64,000 bases of DNA from Kordia jejudonensis (GTDB lineage Bacteria; Bacteroidota; Bacteroidia; Flavobacteriales; Flavobacteriaceae). Location of the stretch: contig NZ_LBMG01000004.1 in NCBI RefSeq assembly GCF_001005315.1, positions 1-64,000 of the forward strand, given 5' to 3'. Each line of letters begins with the position of its first letter. Position 1 is the first letter of the stretch. Both the position numbers and the translations under genes were made by a program. Below are positions 1,571 to 12,804 of the stretch, piece after piece. Under the pieces are notes generated by a model. It was not told the DNA's origin. It saw only the letters and a list, made by a program, of their open reading frames with translations, and ran no database searches.

Positions 1571-1680
1571 GTGTACTATTTTTCTGAATATTAACTTTTT
1601 GAAATTGTAAAATCATTTTCTATGATGTAATTTGCTGTACCAAAACATTTTAGTAATTACTAATTTTAAATGAATTAATC
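1571..1680 (+). repeat. duplicated upstream region, copy 1 (pairs with 1971-2080)
   Basis: This 110-bp stretch ends exactly at the ATG of the first double-glycine peptide gene and aligns without gaps to 1971-2080 in front of the second; I count about 14 mismatches by eye. The invariant parts include tttttctgaa, ttaactttttgaaattgt, a TAATTTG box and the last 20 or so bases before the ATG. The promoter and leader were therefore duplicated together with the gene, and the invariant parts probably mark the promoter. Confidence 0.85.
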
Positions 1681-1878
1681 ATGAAAAAACACATTTCAAG
1701 TATCGGGAAAGTTTTAAGCAAAACGGAACAGAAATCTATCAATGGAGGCTTACTAAGTGGCGGACTTGGTAATCCGTGTCCTATAGTATTATTGGCAGCA
1801 CCACCAGAAGGTTGTCGTTGGGTAGGTATTCCAGTATGTAGGTATAAGTTAGTTTGTGACGCGATCACGATTTACTAA
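1681..1878 (+). CDS. double-glycine leader cysteine peptide (RiPP/bacteriocin-like precursor), copy 1
   Basis: A 65-residue peptide with a 23-residue leader ending in INGG, the classic double-glycine site cut by C39-type peptidases of bacteriocin ABC exporters. The core of 42 residues has four cysteines spaced C-x11-C-x7-C-x5-C, an APPEGC turn and a YKLVC motif. The core has almost no Ser or Thr, so lanthionine rings are unlikely; two disulfides or another cysteine modification fit better. It is a paralogue of the gene at 2081-2284, with the same cysteine spacing and a duplicated upstream region. No modification enzyme or C39 exporter is encoded in this window, so export would depend on genes elsewhere. 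Its biological role (antimicrobial or signal) is unknown. Confidence 0.75.
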   Translation: MKKHISSIGKVLSKTEQKSINGGLLSGGLGNPCPIVLLAAPPEGCRWVGIPVCRYKLVCDAITIY

Positions 1879-1901
1879 ATCTAGTTTTAGATTTTTTAAG
1901 G

Positions 1902-1933
1902 AAACCTTCTCTTCAAACGGAGAAGGTTTTTTT
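1902..1933 (+). terminator. Rho-independent terminator after peptide copy 1
   Basis: The arms aaaccttct and agaaggttt pair perfectly around a short loop and are followed by a T tract. This separates the two peptide genes into independent transcription units. Confidence 0.8.
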
Positions 1934-1970
1934 AATATTTATTTTTTCTGCAACGAATTTAGAGTCGTAT

Positions 1971-2080
1971 GTGTGCTATTTTTCTGAACATTAACTTTTT
2001 GAAATTGTGAAATCATTTTCTATAGCGTAATTTGTTACACCAAAAATTTTTAACGATTACTAATTTTAAATGAATTAATC
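1971..2080 (+). repeat. duplicated upstream region, copy 2 (pairs with 1571-1680)
   Basis: Second copy of the 110-bp upstream module, exactly 400 bp from the first and again ending at an ATG. The last bases before the start codon are identical in both copies. Confidence 0.85.
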
Positions 2081-2284
2081 ATGAAAAAACACATTTTAAG
2101 CATCGGGAAAGCTTTAAGCAAAACAGAACAAAAAGCAATTAACGGAGGCGCAATAGTGCCAACTTCAATTGATTTTCCATGTGAAGAACCTGTATTAGCG
2201 CCGCCACCAATTGGATGCAACTACAAACGTATCAGACCATGTACATACATTTTAGTATGTTTGAGCGACATTACTCTTCATTAA
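2081..2284 (+). CDS. double-glycine leader cysteine peptide (RiPP/bacteriocin-like precursor), copy 2
   Basis: A 67-residue paralogue of the preceding peptide. The 23-residue leader is nearly identical (MKKHIxSIGKxLSKTEQK, ending INGG), while the 44-residue core has diverged at most positions. The core keeps the four cysteines at exactly the same spacing (C-x11-C-x7-C-x5-C), the APPxxGC turn and the YxLVC motif. Conservation of leader and cysteine frame with a variable core is the usual pattern of secreted bacteriocin or pheromone families. Function, modification and target are not known. Confidence 0.75.
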   Translation: MKKHILSIGKALSKTEQKAINGGAIVPTSIDFPCEEPVLAPPPIGCNYKRIRPCTYILVCLSDITLH

Positions 2285-2295
2285 ATTGAATACAG

Positions 2296-2352
2296 AAGCT
2301 GTCTAAAAATTATTATTACAGATTTGGTAAGATAATTTTTTAGATAGCTTTT
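2296..2352. terminator. likely bidirectional terminator between peptide copy 2 and the CHAP gene
   Basis: The sequences agctgtctaaaaattat and ataattttttagatagct pair along most of their length and are flanked by T-rich sequence on the right. They lie between convergent genes, so one hairpin probably serves both. Confidence 0.6.
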
Positions 2353-2365
2353 AATATTTTTTAGA

Positions 2366-2962
2366 TTACTCTTTTCGCAACCAACCTACAACTCTAGCGT
2401 TTGAAATTTTCCAACGATTATCTTCTTGATGTAAATCATATGAAACACGCGTATTACTAAACGGACCTGCATTCTGTTGGATAATTGTGACGGTATTTTC
2501 AGTTACTTTCGTAATAATTGCAACATGTCCGAAACTATTATACCAAGAACTTTGAAACACTAAAATATCATTGATTTTCGGTTTTGAGATGCTTCCATTT
2601 GTATATTGAATCAAATCGCGTTGTATATTTCGTTTACCATCTTTTACGTTCGGATTAAAAAAATCTTTTGCATGACCGTAACTATCTGGCATTTTATGGT
2701 GTAAATATTCATAATAATACCGTTTGACAAATTCAACACATTGAAACTGTAATCCTAAATTATATCCATCTTTTGTTGTATTTCGTTTTTCTACATGATT
2801 TACCGCGCCATTATAATACACAGATACATTATTGAAGGAATCAAGTTCTTCGCCAATAGTTTTAAAAGGATTTAAATTGATACATTTTGAAGATACAATC
2901 AACCCAATTGCAAGTATGCCTAAACAAATAATGAAAATATAAATTCGCTTCACTTTTATCAA
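2366..2962 (-). CDS. CHAP-domain amidase/peptidase, membrane-anchored
   Basis: A 198-residue protein with an N-terminal hydrophobic segment (about residues 7-25), then a CHAP domain. The catalytic Cys is residue 75 in FQCVEF and the His is residue 146 in FGHVAI, followed by a polar N164 in IQQNAG, the usual Cys-His-Asn order. CHAP enzymes cut peptidoglycan cross-links or glutathionylspermidine; this one probably acts on peptidoglycan outside the cytoplasmic membrane. No ATG is available near the N-terminus, so the start is a TTG at 2962 or the GTG at 2953. It lies 7 bp after a small membrane protein gene on the same strand, so the two are probably cotranscribed. Whether it relates to the nearby secreted peptides is unknown. 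Confidence 0.75.
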   Translation of the reverse strand: MIKVKRIYIFIICLGILAIGLIVSSKCINLNPFKTIGEELDSFNNVSVYYNGAVNHVEKRNTTKDGYNLGLQFQCVEFVKRYYYEYLHHKMPDSYGHAKDFFNPNVKDGKRNIQRDLIQYTNGSISKPKINDILVFQSSWYNSFGHVAIITKVTENTVTIIQQNAGPFSNTRVSYDLHQEDNRWKISNARVVGWLRKE

Positions 2963-2969
2963 TCCTTTA

Positions 2970-3485
2970 TTAAAAAATTGTTATTGAATGAATACAACTA
3001 ATTGTTAGAATGATGATTCCAATAATCATAATAATCTTGTTTTTAAGACCGAATCCATATTTTTTTCTAAATGGTTTTTTAATTAACAATGTAATCATAA
3101 ATACTGAAATTACATTTAATGCAATTGCTAAAAGAAAATCTGAAATAAAGAAATCTAGCATATCATTGAAGTCAAGGTAAGTGACTGTAAATAAGAATGA
3201 TATTAGAAGAGTAAACCAGAAAATAATACTACCAATCCAGCCATTTTTATGATTTTGGTATAGCATGATTATCGAAAAGCAGCCTAAAACTATTAGACTA
3301 AAATCAAAATAAAACTCTCTTGTGTAATATGCTAATGATAGTTCTTCCCAAGTAGTCAACTTGTATTTTATGGGTAAAAAGATAGATTCTCTAAGTTTTA
3401 TATAAAAGAAGTACGTTAGTATTAGAATTGTTATTGATTGAACAGCAACAATAATTTTAGTCATTTCGTGAGTATCATTAGTCAT
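2970..3485 (-). CDS. small multi-pass membrane protein, unknown function
   Basis: About 171 residues from the ATG at 3485 (an upstream in-frame TTG at 3536 would add 17 residues and is less likely). Four or five hydrophobic segments are visible, with short charged loops, and there is no recognisable domain. It precedes the CHAP-domain gene by 7 bp on the same strand. I do not recognise the family. Confidence 0.6.
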   Translation of the reverse strand: MTNDTHEMTKIIVAVQSITILILTYFFYIKLRESIFLPIKYKLTTWEELSLAYYTREFYFDFSLIVLGCFSIIMLYQNHKNGWIGSIIFWFTLLISFLFTVTYLDFNDMLDFFISDFLLAIALNVISVFMITLLIKKPFRKKYGFGLKNKIIMIIGIIILTISCIHSITIF

Positions 3486-3620
3486 GTTTAGAGTGTCTAG
3501 TTTTTTAAAGTAAATCTTATTCGTTTTAAGATGCAAAATAATGCTTTAGTATGTACCTAAATTTGATAATAAATTTACAAAGATGAATTTTAGTGTATAA
3601 CTGTAAAACTAATTAATTCG

Positions 3621-3628
3621 TACCTTTG
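3621..3628 (+). promoter_or_regulatory. candidate promoter -7 box (TACCTTTG) of the radical SAM gene
   Basis: TACCTTTG is a perfect TAnnTTTG box 7 bp before the ATG at 3636, implying a nearly leaderless transcript. No convincing -33 TTG is seen at the expected distance. Confidence 0.5.
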
Positions 3629-3635
3629 CACTCTT

Positions 3636-5588
3636 ATGCAAGCAAATAAACTCTCAGATTGGTTACCAACAACAAAAAAAGAAGTAAAAATTCGAGGTTG
3701 GGAAGAACTAGATGTAATTCTATTTAGCGGTGACGCGTATGTAGATCATCCATCATTTGGACCTGCCGTTATTGGTCGTATCTTGGAAAGTTATGGACTA
3801 AAAGTAGCTATAGTTCCGCAACCAAGTGTACACGACGATTTGCAAGATTTTACAAAACTAGGAACGCCAAAATTGTTTTTTGGAGTTACGGGCGGTTGCA
3901 TGGATCCTATGGTGAGTAATTACACTGCAAGTAAAAAACGAAGAGATAAAGACGCCTACACGCCAAACGGTGATAAAGGTTTTCGACCAGATTATGCCAC
4001 ATCAGTATATTCAAATATCTTAAAAGAAAAATTTCCAGATGTTCCTGTGTTAATCGGAGGAATTGAAGCTTCATTACGCCGTGTAACACACTATGATTAT
4101 TGGAGTGATAAACTCATGCCAACCATTTTAGAAACCTCTAAAGCAGATATGTTAGTCTATGGAATGGGCGAACAGCCTTTGCGAGAAGTTGTAAAACTAT
4201 TGCAAAAAGGAGTGCCTTTTTCAAGCTTAAGAACCATAAAACAAACCGCTTTTTTAGTACATAAAGACGAAGAGATTCCTAAAAATAAAAATTGGGATGA
4301 TGTCGAAATTCATTCGCACTATGTTTGTTTAAAGAATAAGAAAAAATTTGCGTCTAACTTTAAAGTCATCGAGCAAGAATCGAATAAACTAAAAGCAAGA
4401 CGAATTTTTCAAGGTGTAAATGACAAGACTTTGGTAATAAATCCACCATATCCTACAATGACGGAACAGGAAATTGATGCTTCTTTCGATTTACCATACA
4501 CACGTTTGCCACATCCAAAATACAACAAGCGCGGACCAATTCCTGCGTTTGAAATGATTAAAACGTCTATCAACATTCATCGTGGTTGCTTTGGCGGTTG
4601 TAGTTTCTGTACAATTTCTGCACATCAAGGAAAATTTATTGCAAGTCGTAGTAAAGAATCTATCTTAAGAGAAGTTGATAAAGTGGCAAACATGCCCGAT
4701 TTTAAAGGCTATTTATCAGATATTGGCGGACCATCTGCTAACATGTATCAAATGAAAGGAAAAGTACAATCGATCTGTGATAAATGTGTCGCACCTTCCT
4801 GTATTTCGCCTGTAATTTGCAGTAATTTAGATACATCTCATAAACCATTAACTGAATTGTATCAAGCAGTAGATAGTCATCCGAAAGTAAAAAAATCATT
4901 CATCGGAAGTGGAATTCGTCACGATATGTTAGTACCAGAATTCAATAAAAATGCAGATGCAAAAGAATTGGATGATTATACAGAAGAAGTGATGACAAAA
5001 CACGTTTCGGGACGTTTAAAAGTAGCTCCAGAGCATACATCTGATCCAGTTTTAAAACTGATGCGTAAGCCTTCATTTGAATATTTTCATAAATTTAAAG
5101 AACGTTTTGATAAAATCAACATCAAGAAAAAATTGAAACTTCAGTTGATTCCGTACTTTATTTCAAATCATCCAGCTTGCGAAGTAGAAGATATGGCAAA
5201 TTTAGCTGCTGAAACCAAAGAAATGGGCTTTCAGTTAGAGCAAGTACAAGGATTTACACCAACACCAATGACGGTTGCAACGGTAATTTACTACAGTGGA
5301 TATCATCCATATACACTAAAACCAACCAAAACACCGAAAACTAAGAAAGAAAAAGAGGAACAACATCGTTTTTTCTTTTGGTATAAAAAGGATAACAAAG
5401 GTTGGATTCGAAGAACGCTGAATAAACTTGGTAGAAAAGATTTAGTAGAAGCGTTGGTGCCTGAAGAAGAAACGAATACGTGGAAAAGTATCAAGCCTAA
5501 AAAGGTGAAAAATACGTTTGATAATGCAATTCCTGCGCATCACGCACGTTCTAAAAAGAAACACAAACCCAAAAAGAAGCGTCGTTAA
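3636..5588 (+). CDS. YgiQ family radical SAM protein
   Basis: The 650-residue product matches the UPF0313/YgiQ family in length and layout. An N-terminal region of about 300 residues contains the family motif GDAYVDHPSFG, followed by a radical SAM core whose 4Fe-4S ligands are C318, C322 and C325 in GCFGGCSFC. A further group of cysteines (around CDKCVAPSCISPVIC) may bind a second cluster. The C-terminus is a basic tail rich in Lys. The reaction of this family is not established. An RluA pseudouridine synthase follows 65 bp downstream on the same strand. The start is supported by a TAnnTTTG box directly upstream. Confidence 0.93.
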   Translation: MQANKLSDWLPTTKKEVKIRGWEELDVILFSGDAYVDHPSFGPAVIGRILESYGLKVAIVPQPSVHDDLQDFTKLGTPKLFFGVTGGCMDPMVSNYTASKKRRDKDAYTPNGDKGFRPDYATSVYSNILKEKFPDVPVLIGGIEASLRRVTHYDYWSDKLMPTILETSKADMLVYGMGEQPLREVVKLLQKGVPFSSLRTIKQTAFLVHKDEEIPKNKNWDDVEIHSHYVCLKNKKKFASNFKVIEQESNKLKARRIFQGVNDKTLVINPPYPTMTEQEIDASFDLPYTRLPHPKYNKRGPIPAFEMIKTSINIHRGCFGGCSFCTISAHQGKFIASRSKESILREVDKVANMPDFKGYLSDIGGPSANMYQMKGKVQSICDKCVAPSCISPVICSNLDTSHKPLTELYQAVDSHPKVKKSFIGSGIRHDMLVPEFNKNADAKELDDYTEEVMTKHVSGRLKVAPEHTSDPVLKLMRKPSFEYFHKFKERFDKINIKKKLKLQLIPYFISNHPACEVEDMANLAAETKEMGFQLEQVQGFTPTPMTVATVIYYSGYHPYTLKPTKTPKTKKEKEEQHRFFFWYKKDNKGWIRRTLNKLGRKDLVEALVPEEETNTWKSIKPKKVKNTFDNAIPAHHARSKKKHKPKKKRR

Positions 5589-6768: not shown

Positions 6769-7380
6769 ATGAGAATATTTATGTTACTGCTTATGGTTTG
6801 TGCTGTAAGTTGTACTTCAAAACCGAAAGAAAAAGCAAAAGAAACTGCTTTACATCAAGAAACGACAACTAAAACAACATCTGAAAAAACCATGGAAAAA
6901 GGATCAATACATCAGTTTACTGTAAAAGATATTGCTGGAAACGTCTTTAAATTAGCCGATTTAAAAGGGAAAAAAGTACTATTTGTCAACACAGCATCTG
7001 AATGTGGATTAACGCCACAATACGAAGTATTACAAGAAGTATACGATACATACAAAGATAAAAACTTTACGATTATTGGTTTTCCTGCAAACAACTTTGG
7101 CGGACAAGAACCTGGAAGTGATCAACAAATTGCAAAATTTTGCAAAGCTAATTACGGCGTAACATTCCCGATGATGAGCAAAATTTCTGTTAAAGGAGCT
7201 GACATGCACGAAGTGTATAAATTCTTAACTCAAAAATCGCAAAACGGATTGCAAGATTCTGAAGTTGCTTGGAATTTTCAAAAATACTTAGTAAACGCTA
7301 ACGGAGAACTTGAAAAAGTAGTTTCTCCACAAACCTTACCAAACGACGAAAGTGTATTGGCTTGGATTGAAGGAAAATAA
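6769..7380 (+). CDS. glutathione peroxidase family lipoprotein
   Basis: Thioredoxin-fold peroxidase of 203 residues. The N-terminus is a lipoprotein signal with lipobox Cys at residue 15 (AVSC), followed by a Lys/Thr-rich linker and the GPx domain from about residue 45. The catalytic triad of the family is complete: Cys79 in ASECGLT, Gln113 in NNFGGQEPG and Trp168 in AWNF. It is a cysteine-type, not selenocysteine, enzyme. Such proteins usually reduce lipid hydroperoxides with thioredoxin as donor; here the lipid anchor places it in the periplasm. A PLP trans-sulfuration enzyme begins 12 bp downstream, suggesting an operon. Confidence 0.93.
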   Translation: MRIFMLLLMVCAVSCTSKPKEKAKETALHQETTTKTTSEKTMEKGSIHQFTVKDIAGNVFKLADLKGKKVLFVNTASECGLTPQYEVLQEVYDTYKDKNFTIIGFPANNFGGQEPGSDQQIAKFCKANYGVTFPMMSKISVKGADMHEVYKFLTQKSQNGLQDSEVAWNFQKYLVNANGELEKVVSPQTLPNDESVLAWIEGK

Positions 7381-9403: not shown

Positions 9404-10582
9404 TTAAGCTCTTTCTAATACCAAGGCTGAAGCGCCACCGCCACCATTACAAATAGCTGCAGCTCCAAGTTTGGCATTATTTTGTTCTAACACATTTAGT
9501 AACGTAATTAGGATACGAACTCCCGAACATCCTAATGGATGTCCTAAAGAAACAGCTCCACCATTTACATTTACTTTATCATCAGACAAGCCTAAGATTT
9601 TCATATTTGCCAATCCAACTACTGAAAATGCTTCATTAAATTCAAAATAGTTAATAGCATCAATATCAAGATTAGCTTTCGCTAAGGCTTTTGGAAGTGC
9701 TTTCGCTGGCGCAGTTGTAAACCATTTTGGTTCGTGTGCGGCATCTGCGTAACTTTTTATCGTTGCTAACGGTTGTAAACCTAGTTCAGCGGCTTTTTCG
9801 GCACTCATTAAAACCATTGCTCCAGCACCATCATTAATAGTAGATGCATTGGCAGCAGTTACGGTACCATCTTTTGTAAAAGCAGGACGTAAGGCAGGAA
9901 TTTTTTCCATCTTTACGTTCTTAAACTCTTCATCTTCACTAACAACAACAGGTTCTCCACGACGTTGTGGAACTTCAACAGGAACTACTTCATTGGCAAA
10001 CTTTCCTTCTGCCCATGCTTTTGCTGAACGTTCGTAAGATTGAATAGCAAATGCATCTTGATCTTCTCTAGAAAATTCATATTCAGTTGCACAGGCATCT
10101 GCACAAACGCCCATCGCTACATTATCATACACATCTACCAGACCATCTTTTTGCATTCCGTCTTCCATTTTGGCAGGACCAAATTTCGTTGCTTGGCGTG
10201 CGTGGTAGTAATGTGGAATTAAACTCATGTTTTCCATTCCTCCAGCAACTACAATATCAGCATCACCTAATGCGATGGCTTGTGCAGCTTGCATTACGGC
10301 TTTCATACCTGAAGCACAGACTTTATTTACCGTAGTACATGGAACGGTATCTGGAATTCCAGCAAAAATTGCGGCTTGTCGTGCAGGAGCTTGTCCTGTT
10401 CCAGCTTGTACAACATTCCCCATAATCACTTCTTGTACATGTTCTGGTGCCAAATTTATTTGTGCCAAAGCACCTTTAATGGCTGTTGCTCCTAACTTTG
10501 GAGCTGGTATAGTGGATAAAGCGCCTAAAAAACTTCCGATTGGAGTTCTTGCAGCTGCTACAATAACAACTTCTTTACTCAT
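9404..10582 (-). CDS. acetyl-CoA C-acyltransferase (thiolase)
   Basis: A 392-residue thiolase with all catalytic motifs: nucleophile C89 in NKVCASG, H348 in GHPLG and C378 in ICNGGGGA. It condenses or cleaves acetoacetyl-CoA and longer 3-ketoacyl-CoA. It resembles the biosynthetic acetyl-CoA acetyltransferase type, but the substrate length cannot be read from sequence. The gene is divergent from the PgpH-type gene, with a 131-bp promoter region between them, and is probably cotranscribed with the NlpC/P60 gene. Confidence 0.93.
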   Translation of the reverse strand: MSKEVVIVAAARTPIGSFLGALSTIPAPKLGATAIKGALAQINLAPEHVQEVIMGNVVQAGTGQAPARQAAIFAGIPDTVPCTTVNKVCASGMKAVMQAAQAIALGDADIVVAGGMENMSLIPHYYHARQATKFGPAKMEDGMQKDGLVDVYDNVAMGVCADACATEYEFSREDQDAFAIQSYERSAKAWAEGKFANEVVPVEVPQRRGEPVVVSEDEEFKNVKMEKIPALRPAFTKDGTVTAANASTINDGAGAMVLMSAEKAAELGLQPLATIKSYADAAHEPKWFTTAPAKALPKALAKANLDIDAINYFEFNEAFSVVGLANMKILGLSDDKVNVNGGAVSLGHPLGCSGVRILITLLNVLEQNNAKLGAAAICNGGGGASALVLERA

Positions 10583-10713
10583 GATTTTTGCTTAACGTTT
10601 AATTGCTGCGAATTTAATTATTTTTTAGAAGATATCCGTATAAATTATCAATTTAAGCGATAATAAGACACGCTTAATTTTAGTATTTTTGAATATTACC
10701 ATATATTCGTTCA

Positions 10714-12804
10714 ATGAAGCAGCTCATCAACAAGTTATACAAAAATCAATCGTTAGTCTATAAAATCTTTTTATACATACTAACTACTTTTTTGGTGGTA
10801 TATCTTTTTCCAAAAGGCGGGCAGTTTCAATATGAATTTCAAAAGGGAAAACCTTGGCAGTACGAAACTTTAATTGCACCTTTTGATTTCCCAATTGCAA
10901 AAACTCCACAAGAAATTGAAGCTGAAAAATCCGAAATTATTGCCAACGCAAATACCTATTATTATTATGATACAACAATTGCAGAACGTGTAGAAAGTGA
11001 TTTTAATGAAGAGTTTGATAGGCTTTTTGGAAATGATAGTATTGCGGAAACACGAGCATTTTCTACGTTAAAATCAAAGGCGACGCGATTGTTAGGAAAT
11101 TTTTACAAAAACGGTGTTATTGAAGTTGTTGATGAATCTAAAAAGGACAAACTCGTCATTTTGACACAAGGTAATGAAGAACGAAATGTGAGTTATAATT
11201 CATTCATCAAATTAAATAATCTTCAAAAATATATCAGTGATTTTGCCGCGCGTGAGTCATTAGAAAACTACGAAACACAATTGTATAGCTTGTTTTTCGA
11301 TGTGGTAGAACCCAATGTGACAATCAATACTGAAATCACAAATAGTGAATTGTCTGCGAGGTTAGAGCAAATGGCGTACACACATGGAAATGTGCAAGAA
11401 GGTATCCGAATTATTGCCAAAGGTGAAGTAGTTGAAGGTGACAAGCTAGCGCAATTAGAATCGCTCAAAAAAGAATATGAATCACAGATTTGGAATGAAT
11501 CTAATTACAATTGGATCGTTTTCGGTTATACTATTTTAGTAGCATTGGCATTGTTAATGTTGTTGTTATTCATTCGAAAATACCGTCCTGAAATTTATGA
11601 AAATAATAATAAAGTGACGTTTATTTTCATGAATATTGTTTTTATGATTGTACTAACAACGTTGGTTGTAAAATACAATGCTAACTATGTATATATCGTT
11701 CCATTATGTATATTGCCATTAATTCTGAAAGCATTTTTTGATGCACGTTTGGGTTTATTTGCACATGTATTAACCGTACTACTTTTAGGATTTATAGTTC
11801 CAAACAGTTCAGAATATATCTTTTTACAAATCATAGCTGGTATCGTTACCATTTTAACAGTTTCTGAGTTATACAAGCGAGCCAATCTCTTTATTTCTGT
11901 CGGACAGATTACCTTAATTTACATCATAGCATATTTTGCTTTTTACATTACACATGAAGGTGGCATCAAATTTACAGAAGTATTTAGTAAGAATGAATTA
12001 GGCAACGTACATGTAACGTGGATTTATTTCATGCAATTCATGTTATGTGGATTGGCAACGTTGTTTGTGCAACCGTTAATATATATTTACGAGAAGATTT
12101 TCGGACTGGTGTCAGATGTGTCTTTGTTAGAATTATCAGATACTAATTCAAAACTCTTAAAACGACTCGCGAATGAAGCACCTGGAACATTTCATCACTC
12201 ATTACAAGTGGCGAACTTGGCGGAAGCCGCAGCAAGTGAAATTGGCGCAAATACCATGTTGGTTAGAGTAGGAGCATTGTATCATGATATTGGAAAGATG
12301 AACAATCCGACTTTTTTCATTGAAAATCAGGCAACTTCGGTAAATCCGCATGATGAATTGGCACCAGATGAAAGTGCGGCAATGATTATTGATCATGTAT
12401 TGGATGGAATTGAAATCGCGAAAAGCAATAAAATTCCAGACAGAATTATAGATTTCATACGAACACATCACGGAACATCTACAGTTTATTACTTTTATCA
12501 AAAAGCAAAAGAACTCGATGAAGAAGTGTCTAAAGAACAATTTCAATACCCTGGACCGATCCCATTTTCTAAAGAAACGGCAATTTTAATGATGGCAGAT
12601 TCTGTGGAAGCGGCTTCAAAAAGTTTAAAAGAGCCAACATCGCAGAAAATTGATCAATTTGTAGAGCGCATTATTGACAAACAAATGGATGAACAACAAT
12701 TTATGAATGCAGATATTACCTTAAAAGAAATTGTAACCATCAAAAAGGTGTTAAAAAAGAAGCTAAATAATAGCTATCATTTACGAATAGAATATCCAGA
12801 ATAA
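10714..12804 (+). CDS. 7TM-HD phosphohydrolase (PgpH/YqfF type, probable c-di-AMP phosphodiesterase)
   Basis: A 696-residue membrane protein. After one N-terminal TM helix (about 18-36) comes a large extracytoplasmic domain of about 220 residues (7TMR-HDED type), then a block of about seven TM helices (from about 266 to 465), then a cytoplasmic HD domain. The HD motif is H524-D525 in LYHDIGK, with upstream H in TFHHSLQVA and a later HHG motif. Characterised members hydrolyse cyclic di-AMP to pApA. Function in this organism is inferred from the family. Confidence 0.9.
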   Translation: MKQLINKLYKNQSLVYKIFLYILTTFLVVYLFPKGGQFQYEFQKGKPWQYETLIAPFDFPIAKTPQEIEAEKSEIIANANTYYYYDTTIAERVESDFNEEFDRLFGNDSIAETRAFSTLKSKATRLLGNFYKNGVIEVVDESKKDKLVILTQGNEERNVSYNSFIKLNNLQKYISDFAARESLENYETQLYSLFFDVVEPNVTINTEITNSELSARLEQMAYTHGNVQEGIRIIAKGEVVEGDKLAQLESLKKEYESQIWNESNYNWIVFGYTILVALALLMLLLFIRKYRPEIYENNNKVTFIFMNIVFMIVLTTLVVKYNANYVYIVPLCILPLILKAFFDARLGLFAHVLTVLLLGFIVPNSSEYIFLQIIAGIVTILTVSELYKRANLFISVGQITLIYIIAYFAFYITHEGGIKFTEVFSKNELGNVHVTWIYFMQFMLCGLATLFVQPLIYIYEKIFGLVSDVSLLELSDTNSKLLKRLANEAPGTFHHSLQVANLAEAAASEIGANTMLVRVGALYHDIGKMNNPTFFIENQATSVNPHDELAPDESAAMIIDHVLDGIEIAKSNKIPDRIIDFIRTHHGTSTVYYFYQKAKELDEEVSKEQFQYPGPIPFSKETAILMMADSVEAASKSLKEPTSQKIDQFVERIIDKQMDEQQFMNADITLKEIVTIKKVLKKKLNNSYHLRIEYPE

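What the first reader, a model, noticed from the sequence alone, without database searches (positions are those of the whole stretch)
1571..2284. Tandem pair of double-glycine cysteine peptides with duplicated upstream regions and invariant Cys frame
Two neighbouring genes encode 65- and 67-residue peptides whose leaders are nearly identical and whose cores differ but keep C-x11-C-x7-C-x5-C. The 110 bp upstream of each was duplicated with the gene. This is how diversifying secreted peptide families behave, and the family is not one I recognise.
Basis: partly seen in the sequence, partly recalled or inferred. Interest (0 to 1): 0.75.

Follow-up and report, generated by a model that had tools for sequence, protein, structure and literature searches.

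The report
Paired disulfide peptides with shared leader
Two neighbouring genes in a marine Kordia bacterium encode small, probably disulfide-bonded secreted peptides that share one export tag with dozens of unrelated peptides in the same bacterial family, pointing to a common secretion and oxidation route for peptides whose job is still unknown.

Summary
ORFs 1681-1878 (65 aa, 'A') and 2081-2284 (67 aa, 'B') sit on a 179-nt direct repeat (87%, spacing 400) that ends exactly at the leader's GG. Both cores read C-x11-C-x7-C-x5-C.

A and B are an old paralogue pair, seen only in Kordia: both in 6 of 11 genomes, B alone in 2, neither in 3. Cores form two clades (100/100) under purifying selection (omega 0.28), so this pair is not diversifying. 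Upstream+leader sequence does not follow that split, consistent with gene conversion.

The 23-residue leader marks a wider Flavobacteriaceae class with mostly unalignable cores. Of 109 distinct cores, 101 have an even number of cysteines, the signature of disulfides. In 299 family genomes the leader co-occurs with VKOR-domain proteins (20 of 22; p = 2.7e-17) and C39 exporters (20 of 22), often within 10 kb. The window's genome holds one C39 exporter with HlyD and two VKOR fusions, one beside a same-leader peptide.

Best reading: secreted disulfide-bonded peptides, processed in trans by that machinery, working like bacteroidetocins but not shown to be members. Activity (antibacterial or signalling) is undetermined.

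The parts
1571..1680 (+). 110 nt upstream of gene A, repeat copy 1; holds the block 1605-1636 that is shared with copy 2
   Evidence: the repeat finder; block found only twice in the window, 0 expected
1681..1749 (+). 23-residue double-glycine leader of peptide A
   Evidence: leader profile E 6.2e-14 (this row is part of the profile)
1750..1878 (+). core of peptide A (42 residues + stop), C-x11-C-x7-C-x5-C
   Evidence: AlphaFold2 model weak, mean pLDDT 66.9, strands at core residues 22-27 and 31-36
1896..1935 (+). terminator-like hairpin between the two genes
   Evidence: 1 found; mean 0.3 in shuffles
1971..2080 (+). 110 nt upstream of gene B, repeat copy 2; shared block 2005-2036
2081..2149 (+). 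23-residue double-glycine leader of peptide B
   Evidence: leader profile E 4.7e-14 (this row is part of the profile)
2150..2284 (+). core of peptide B (44 residues + stop), C-x11-C-x7-C-x5-C

Best explanation
A and B are precursors of small secreted peptides with two disulfide bonds each. The 23-residue leader addresses them to a C39 peptidase-ABC exporter (PCAT), which cuts after the double glycine and passes the core out with a HlyD adaptor. A membrane VKOR protein fused to a thioredoxin-like part and to an N-terminal C39-like domain without the catalytic cysteine supplies the disulfides. Because no such gene lies near the pair, the machinery must act in trans: the single C39 exporter found in this genome (contig C143) and a VKOR fusion (contig C24 or C101). 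Shown: the sequences, conservation, the leader class, the cysteine parity, and co-occurrence with the machinery. Inferred: cleavage, export, disulfides, the in-trans assignment. The released peptides most likely act outside the cell, as antibacterial peptides of bacteroidetocin kind or as signals; antibacterial is slightly favoured only by precedent.
For: Leader conserved: 6 invariant columns in 22 diverse peptides; hits at E <= 0.1 in 11 of 11 Kordia genomes and 7 of 49 others of the 60 searched, most of those 7 weak. Even cysteines: 78 of 82 distinct cores, 50 of 54 clusters, p = 1.9e-11, shuffled maximum 38 of 54; second set fetched later 23 of 27, p = 1.6e-4. Co-occurrence in 299 family genomes: leader in 22, VKOR in 43, both in 20, p = 2.7e-17; C39 in 86, with leader in 20, p = 3.6e-10; 28 of 57 leader sites lie within 10 kb of a VKOR, 26 within 10 kb of a C39 exporter. 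VKOR hit in 11 of 11 Kordia; same-leader peptide within 2 kb of one in 9 of 11. Own exporter: C39 + ABC domains, HlyD_3 protein next door, 95-98% identical in the 10 other Kordia genomes. Own VKOR fusions: no cysteine in the first 140 residues of either. Purifying selection on cores.
Against: No exporter, oxidase or evident immunity gene lies beside the pair. The only C39 exporter found in G000 sits in a lanthipeptide-type locus, so its cargo may be lanthipeptides. Two leader genomes lack a VKOR hit (G362, G417) and two lack a C39 hit (G417, G515) at the thresholds used. 8 of 109 cores have an odd number of cysteines. The C39-like part of the VKOR fusions is a weak match: 18.0 and 20.2 bits in G000, under the cut-off of 22, but 23.3 bits, over it, in Tenacibaculum. 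In 6 of 17 Kordia fusions the first 140 residues do hold one or two cysteines; whether one is at the catalytic place was not checked by a residue alignment. The structure model is too weak to prove disulfide pairing. No expression or mass data.
Confidence: 0.66

Rival explanations
1. A and B are the two halves of a class IIb-type two-peptide bacteriocin that act together.
For: Tandem arrangement, same leader, similar size; both kept in 6 of 11 Kordia genomes.
Against: B occurs without A in 2 genomes (G005, G008). The order of A and B differs between genomes and a terminator-like hairpin separates them here. No evident immunity gene beside them; the conserved CHAP neighbour is also present in the three genomes without the peptides.
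Confidence: 0.12
2. Class I lanthipeptide precursors: the cysteines form thioethers with dehydrated Ser/Thr, made by the lanthipeptide-type enzymes next to the exporter on C143.
For: A lanthipeptide-type locus carries the only C39 exporter found in the genome; 12 of 22 leaders have a weak match to lant_leader_L1a, best E 0.013.
Against: Cores have only 2-5 Ser+Thr and none is invariant; the A core of G000 has 2 for 4 Cys. Even cysteine number is expected for disulfides, not thioethers. The precursors at that locus carry a different leader.
Confidence: 0.07
3. Secreted signalling peptides (pheromones) sensed by the genus, rather than antibacterial peptides. This overlaps with the best explanation, which leaves the activity open.
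For: Purifying selection on both cores, no evident immunity gene nearby, two distinct types kept over the genus.
Against: No receptor gene recognised beside the pair; three Kordia genomes lack it. Bacteroidetocin loci have no obvious immunity gene either (PMC6671954, passages), so that point does not separate the two.
Confidence: 0.3
4. Not secreted: cytoplasmic or periplasmic small proteins whose GG is coincidental.
For: No local export gene; AlphaFold2 gives no confident fold.
Against: The leader is shared with peptides that lie close to C39 exporters and VKOR genes; cores are cysteine-rich with even parity.
Confidence: 0.06

Closest known systems
Bacteroidetocins (proposed class IIf; PMC6671954, passages read)
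   Same: Bacteroidota; double-glycine leader; mature peptides of 42 aa with four Cys in A and B (42-48 aa in three further ones); C39 ABC exporter and a thiol oxidoreductase whose deletion attenuates toxin activity; no obvious immunity protein.
   Different: Leader 23 aa, not 15-16; genes unlinked to the machinery; paired; leader class shared by many unrelated cores. No direct sequence comparison with bacteroidetocins was run.
NCBIfam NF047798 leader_Chryseo, 'bacteriocin-like protein'
   Same: The second half of the leader (residues 12-23) aligns to profile positions 7-18 of 18.
   Different: 13.6 and 13.0 bits for the whole peptides, 16.4 for the A leader alone; cut-off 23.5: below the family's threshold.
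Class II bacteriocins/microcins with C39 (PCAT) export
   Same: GG leader, small core, disulfides inferred.
   Different: No match to any Pfam model and only leader_Chryseo in NCBIfam, for two peptides; no solved structure matched.

Membership tests
Double-glycine peptides exported by C39 ABC transporters | Conserved leader ending in GG | tested here: met
Double-glycine peptides exported by C39 ABC transporters | C39 ABC exporter in the genome | tested here: met
   one in G000 at E <= 1e-4, on another contig
Double-glycine peptides exported by C39 ABC transporters | Exporter gene linked to the peptide gene | tested here: not met
   no C39 hit on contig C152 and none recognised in the flanks of the 7 other A/B loci; met for other members of the leader class
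Double-glycine peptides exported by C39 ABC transporters | Cleavage after GG | not testable with these tools
   needs mass spectrometry
Bacteroidetocins | Leader of 15-16 aa | tested here: not met
   leader is 23 aa; figure from PMC6671954
Bacteroidetocins | At least two Cys, mature size near 42-48 aa | tested here: met
   four Cys, 42 and 44 aa cores
Bacteroidetocins | Same gene region (TM protein, peptide, thiol oxidoreductase, exporter) | tested here: not met
Bacteroidetocins | Sequence similarity to bacteroidetocin A/B | not tested
   no bacteroidetocin sequence was fetched or compared
Class I lanthipeptides | Leader model lant_leader_L1a (22 bits) | tested here: not met
   14.0 bits for the A leader
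Class I lanthipeptides | Conserved Ser/Thr for ring formation | tested here: not met
   no invariant Ser/Thr in 14 cores
NF047798 leader_Chryseo | Score over 23.5 bits | tested here: not met
   13.6 and 13.0 bits for the peptides, 16.4 for the A leader alone
Class IIb two-peptide bacteriocins | Both partners always present | tested here: not met
   B alone in 2 of 8 genomes with the family

The most novel reading that the evidence does not exclude
A leader-addressed disulfide pathway: the dead C39-like domain of the VKOR-thioredoxin protein binds the same leader as the live C39 domain of the exporter, so that one short tag sends dozens of unrelated, genome-scattered cysteine peptides both to their oxidase and to their exporter. 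Kordia would then keep a genus-wide library of orphan peptides served in trans, whose leaders (and in the window's genome the promoter region) are homogenised by gene conversion while the cores stay separate.
Probability: 0.33. Interest if true: 0.78.

Novelty: new variant of a known kind. Interest (0 to 1): 0.54.

Why it matters
It gives a simple, testable rule for finding disulfide peptides in marine Bacteroidota: look for the leader, not the core. About half of the leader sites lie more than 10 kb from a VKOR or C39 gene, so mining by gene cluster would tend to miss them (inference). The searches made here listed no paper on such a fusion (open-licence library, showing 10 of 67) and the passages seen of two Kordia/Flavobacteriaceae genome papers do not describe these peptides.

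Tried and rejected
Solved structures: profile of the 14 peptides, 0 hits at E up to 5. Core profile in 296 genomes of the phylum: 31 genomes match at E <= 0.1, only G000 convincingly; no other Kordia genome is among the 31. The best other hit (E 7.1e-4, G131) lies in a GC-rich stretch where the ORFs listed are no cysteine peptide and is taken as chance; the others were not inspected.

CHAP-domain neighbour (2366-2962, minus) as partner or immunity gene: present in 10 of 11 Kordia, including the three without the peptides, and missing in one (G010) with them: rejected.

Promoter: the shared block contains TTG and, 20 nt on, TAATTTG, but a strict search for the Bacteroidetes pattern TTG...TAnnTTTG (recalled consensus) found none in 14 upstream regions; the one reported hit, G005_B, came from a relaxed alternative. 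No promoter claim is made. The sigma-70 scan gave 2 sites against a mean of 4.5 in shuffles.

AlphaFold2 of the A core: mean pLDDT 66.9, pTM 0.37, a hairpin only. The fold search could not be run.

In the first protein alignment the five minus-strand rows were cut one codon off (first Met missing); it was used only for the PDB profile search. Later alignments used corrected coordinates.

Full report
WHAT IS THERE. The window lies in a Kordia genome (the genus is named through matching records of K. aestuariivivens and an uncultured Kordia, whose contig lengths equal those of G006 and G001). It holds two short genes, A at 1681-1878 and B at 2081-2284. A 179-nt direct repeat (87%, spacing 400) covers 110 nt upstream and the 69-nt leader of each and stops at the double glycine. 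A terminator-like hairpin lies between them. The leaders agree at 20 of 23 residues; both cores read C-x11-C-x7-C-x5-C.

ORTHOLOGUES. Among 11 Kordia genomes (own included), 6 have A and B, 2 have B only, 3 have neither. In two of those three (G004, G007) the CHAP-domain gene and a second window neighbour (6769-7380) stand side by side without the peptide genes; in the third (G009) the CHAP gene is present. All 14 cores keep four cysteines and further invariant L, P, P, G, Y, L positions. The cores form two clades, A and B, support 100/100. A/A core identity is 60-84%, B/B 56-88%, A/B 39-56%. Codon models give omega 0.281 (A core) and 0.277 (B core), 0.107 and 0.071 for the leaders. So the pair is old and conserved, not rapidly diversifying; these are short alignments (38 and 43 codons) and site-wise positive selection was not tested.

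MOSAIC EVOLUTION. The leader alone, or upstream+leader, does not give the A/B split: the AU test rejects A as one clade (p = 0.0195 and 0.0148), and the two copies of the window's genome are sisters (97/95) in the upstream+leader tree. Most other branches of those trees are weak. In G002 the two leaders differ by dS 0.08 while the cores differ by dS 0.92. Gene conversion limited to leader, with or without promoter region, is the simplest reading. The upstream is not homogenised in every genome: in G001, G002, G003 and G010 the A and B upstreams are only 39-58% identical in the alignment used, in G006 66%, in G000 78% (140 nt, gapped).

THE LEADER CLASS. A 22-row leader profile finds members in 11 of 11 Kordia genomes (4-17 each at E <= 0.1) and in 7 of 49 others of the 60 searched. 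Cores behind the leader are mostly unalignable. With a bit cut-off of 14, the loci then in hand gave 82 distinct cores (14 of them A or B): 5 with two, 41 with four, 1 with five, 32 with six, 3 with seven cysteines; 50 of 54 clusters even, p = 1.9e-11 against one half, shuffled pool mean 27 and maximum 38. Loci fetched later gave 27 further cores, 23 even, p = 1.6e-4. This is strong indirect evidence for paired cysteines. The cores are not fully independent by descent.

THE MACHINERY. In a Tenacibaculum record (L023) 16 same-leader peptides stand with a VKOR fusion, a C39 ABC exporter and a HlyD-like gene (the HlyD label there is from the look of its start, not from a search). In 299 family genomes (three searches that I take to be the same draw, as counts and listed handles agree) the leader at E <= 1e-5 is in 22, VKOR at E <= 1e-5 in 43, C39 at E <= 1e-15 in 86. 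Of the 22 leader genomes 20 have VKOR (p = 2.7e-17), each with at least one VKOR open frame of 519 codons or more, the size of the fusion (read); 20 of 22 have C39 (p = 3.6e-10). Without three genomes known to have fed the profile it is 17 of 19 (p = 7e-15); the Tenacibaculum and Dokdonia records that also fed it could not be matched to handles. 28 of 57 leader sites lie within 10 kb of a VKOR, 26 of a C39 exporter, 24 of both. The leader search scored at most 29 candidates a genome, so its counts are lower bounds. Fisher tests ignore shared descent. VKOR occurs in 11 of 11 Kordia genomes (17 sites), with a same-leader peptide within 2 kb of one in 9; G005 shows only a partial leader match there and none was found in G003.

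IN THE WINDOW'S OWN GENOME. One C39 exporter at E <= 1e-4, on contig C143 (L044:7257-9464), with a HlyD_3 protein (9466-10824); the exporter is 95-98% identical in the 10 other Kordia genomes. It stands in a lanthipeptide-type locus: thiopep_ocin 269.7 bits (over its cut-off), a lanthionine-cyclase-like protein (best LanM 66.2 bits, below its cut-off of 304), a precursor with lant_leader_L1a at 19.4 bits (cut-off 22); the 751-aa protein that looks like a LanB dehydratase by its start (recalled) matched no NCBIfam model. Two VKOR fusions: on C24 (L047:5672-7234; VKOR 46 bits; same-leader peptide 166 nt downstream) and on C101 (L048:6300-7919; VKOR 26.4 bits against a cut-off of 27.5 in Pfam, over it). 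Their C39 matches begin at profile positions 29 and 23 and score 18.0 and 20.2 bits (cut-off 22); Thioredoxin_4 scores 18.5 and 26.3 bits (cut-off 23.2). Neither has a cysteine in its first 140 residues and each has two CxxC motifs. The Tenacibaculum fusion passes all three cut-offs.

HOW IT MOST LIKELY WORKS. Leader-tagged A and B are made in the cytoplasm, recognised and cut by the C143 exporter, carried out with HlyD, and oxidised by a VKOR fusion. The first part rests on the known role of C39 exporters (established knowledge; also PMC6671954 passages), the oxidase on co-occurrence and parity. That the C39-like part of the VKOR fusion reads the leader is a hypothesis. What the peptides do is open: bacteroidetocins are the nearest precedent for an antibacterial role, whereas conservation without hypervariability fits signalling as well.

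NOVELTY. Core: outside Kordia only leader-level matches, or leader plus the first core residues, in what was searched (reaches close relatives only). Leader: below the cut-off of the NCBIfam models it matches, nearest 'leader_Chryseo' and lant_leader_L1a. Literature: nine searches of the open-licence library listed no paper on this family or on a C39-VKOR fusion; several listings were capped (for example 12 of 2,142, 10 of 67) and subscription papers are not held. Of papers, only passages were seen (PMC6671954, PMC10352776, PMC10734526, PMC7477175). Overall a new variant of a known kind.

Noticed in passing
L035:2609-2827 and 2940-4661; L037:1629-1844 and 1954-3690; L044:11993-13705: Large proteins next to small GG-type peptide genes in Kordia; the L035 one has TPR repeats and an AraC-type helix-turn-helix. 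Homologues of the L044 one recur beside the conserved exporter in the 10 other Kordia genomes. This looks like a peptide-sensing or peptide-regulating arrangement.
   Followed up: partly
L108:589-750, L109:680-841, L110:459-623 and 676-837, L111:2129-2290, L112:701-862, L113:697-858, L114:701-865, L125:2005-2184: A short same-leader peptide (core about 30-37 aa) near the VKOR fusion: C-x2-C-GG in six Kordia genomes, variants of it in two more. In the window's genome a different peptide takes its place.
   Followed up: partly
L044:10914-17922: Lanthipeptide-type locus next to the only C39 exporter found in the window's genome, with two precursor-like genes.
   Followed up: partly
L120:1374-1565 and 1816-2028 (G000 contig C163): A second neighbouring pair in the window's genome with a 25-residue variant of the leader and six cysteines in each core.
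   Followed up: no
L023:5950-11515: Tenacibaculum array of 16 different same-leader cysteine peptides with an exporter and a VKOR fusion.
   Followed up: partly
window 2366-2962 (-): CHAP-domain protein, conserved in 10 of 11 Kordia genomes; next to the peptide genes in 6 of the 8 genomes that have them, but also present in the three without them.
   Followed up: yes
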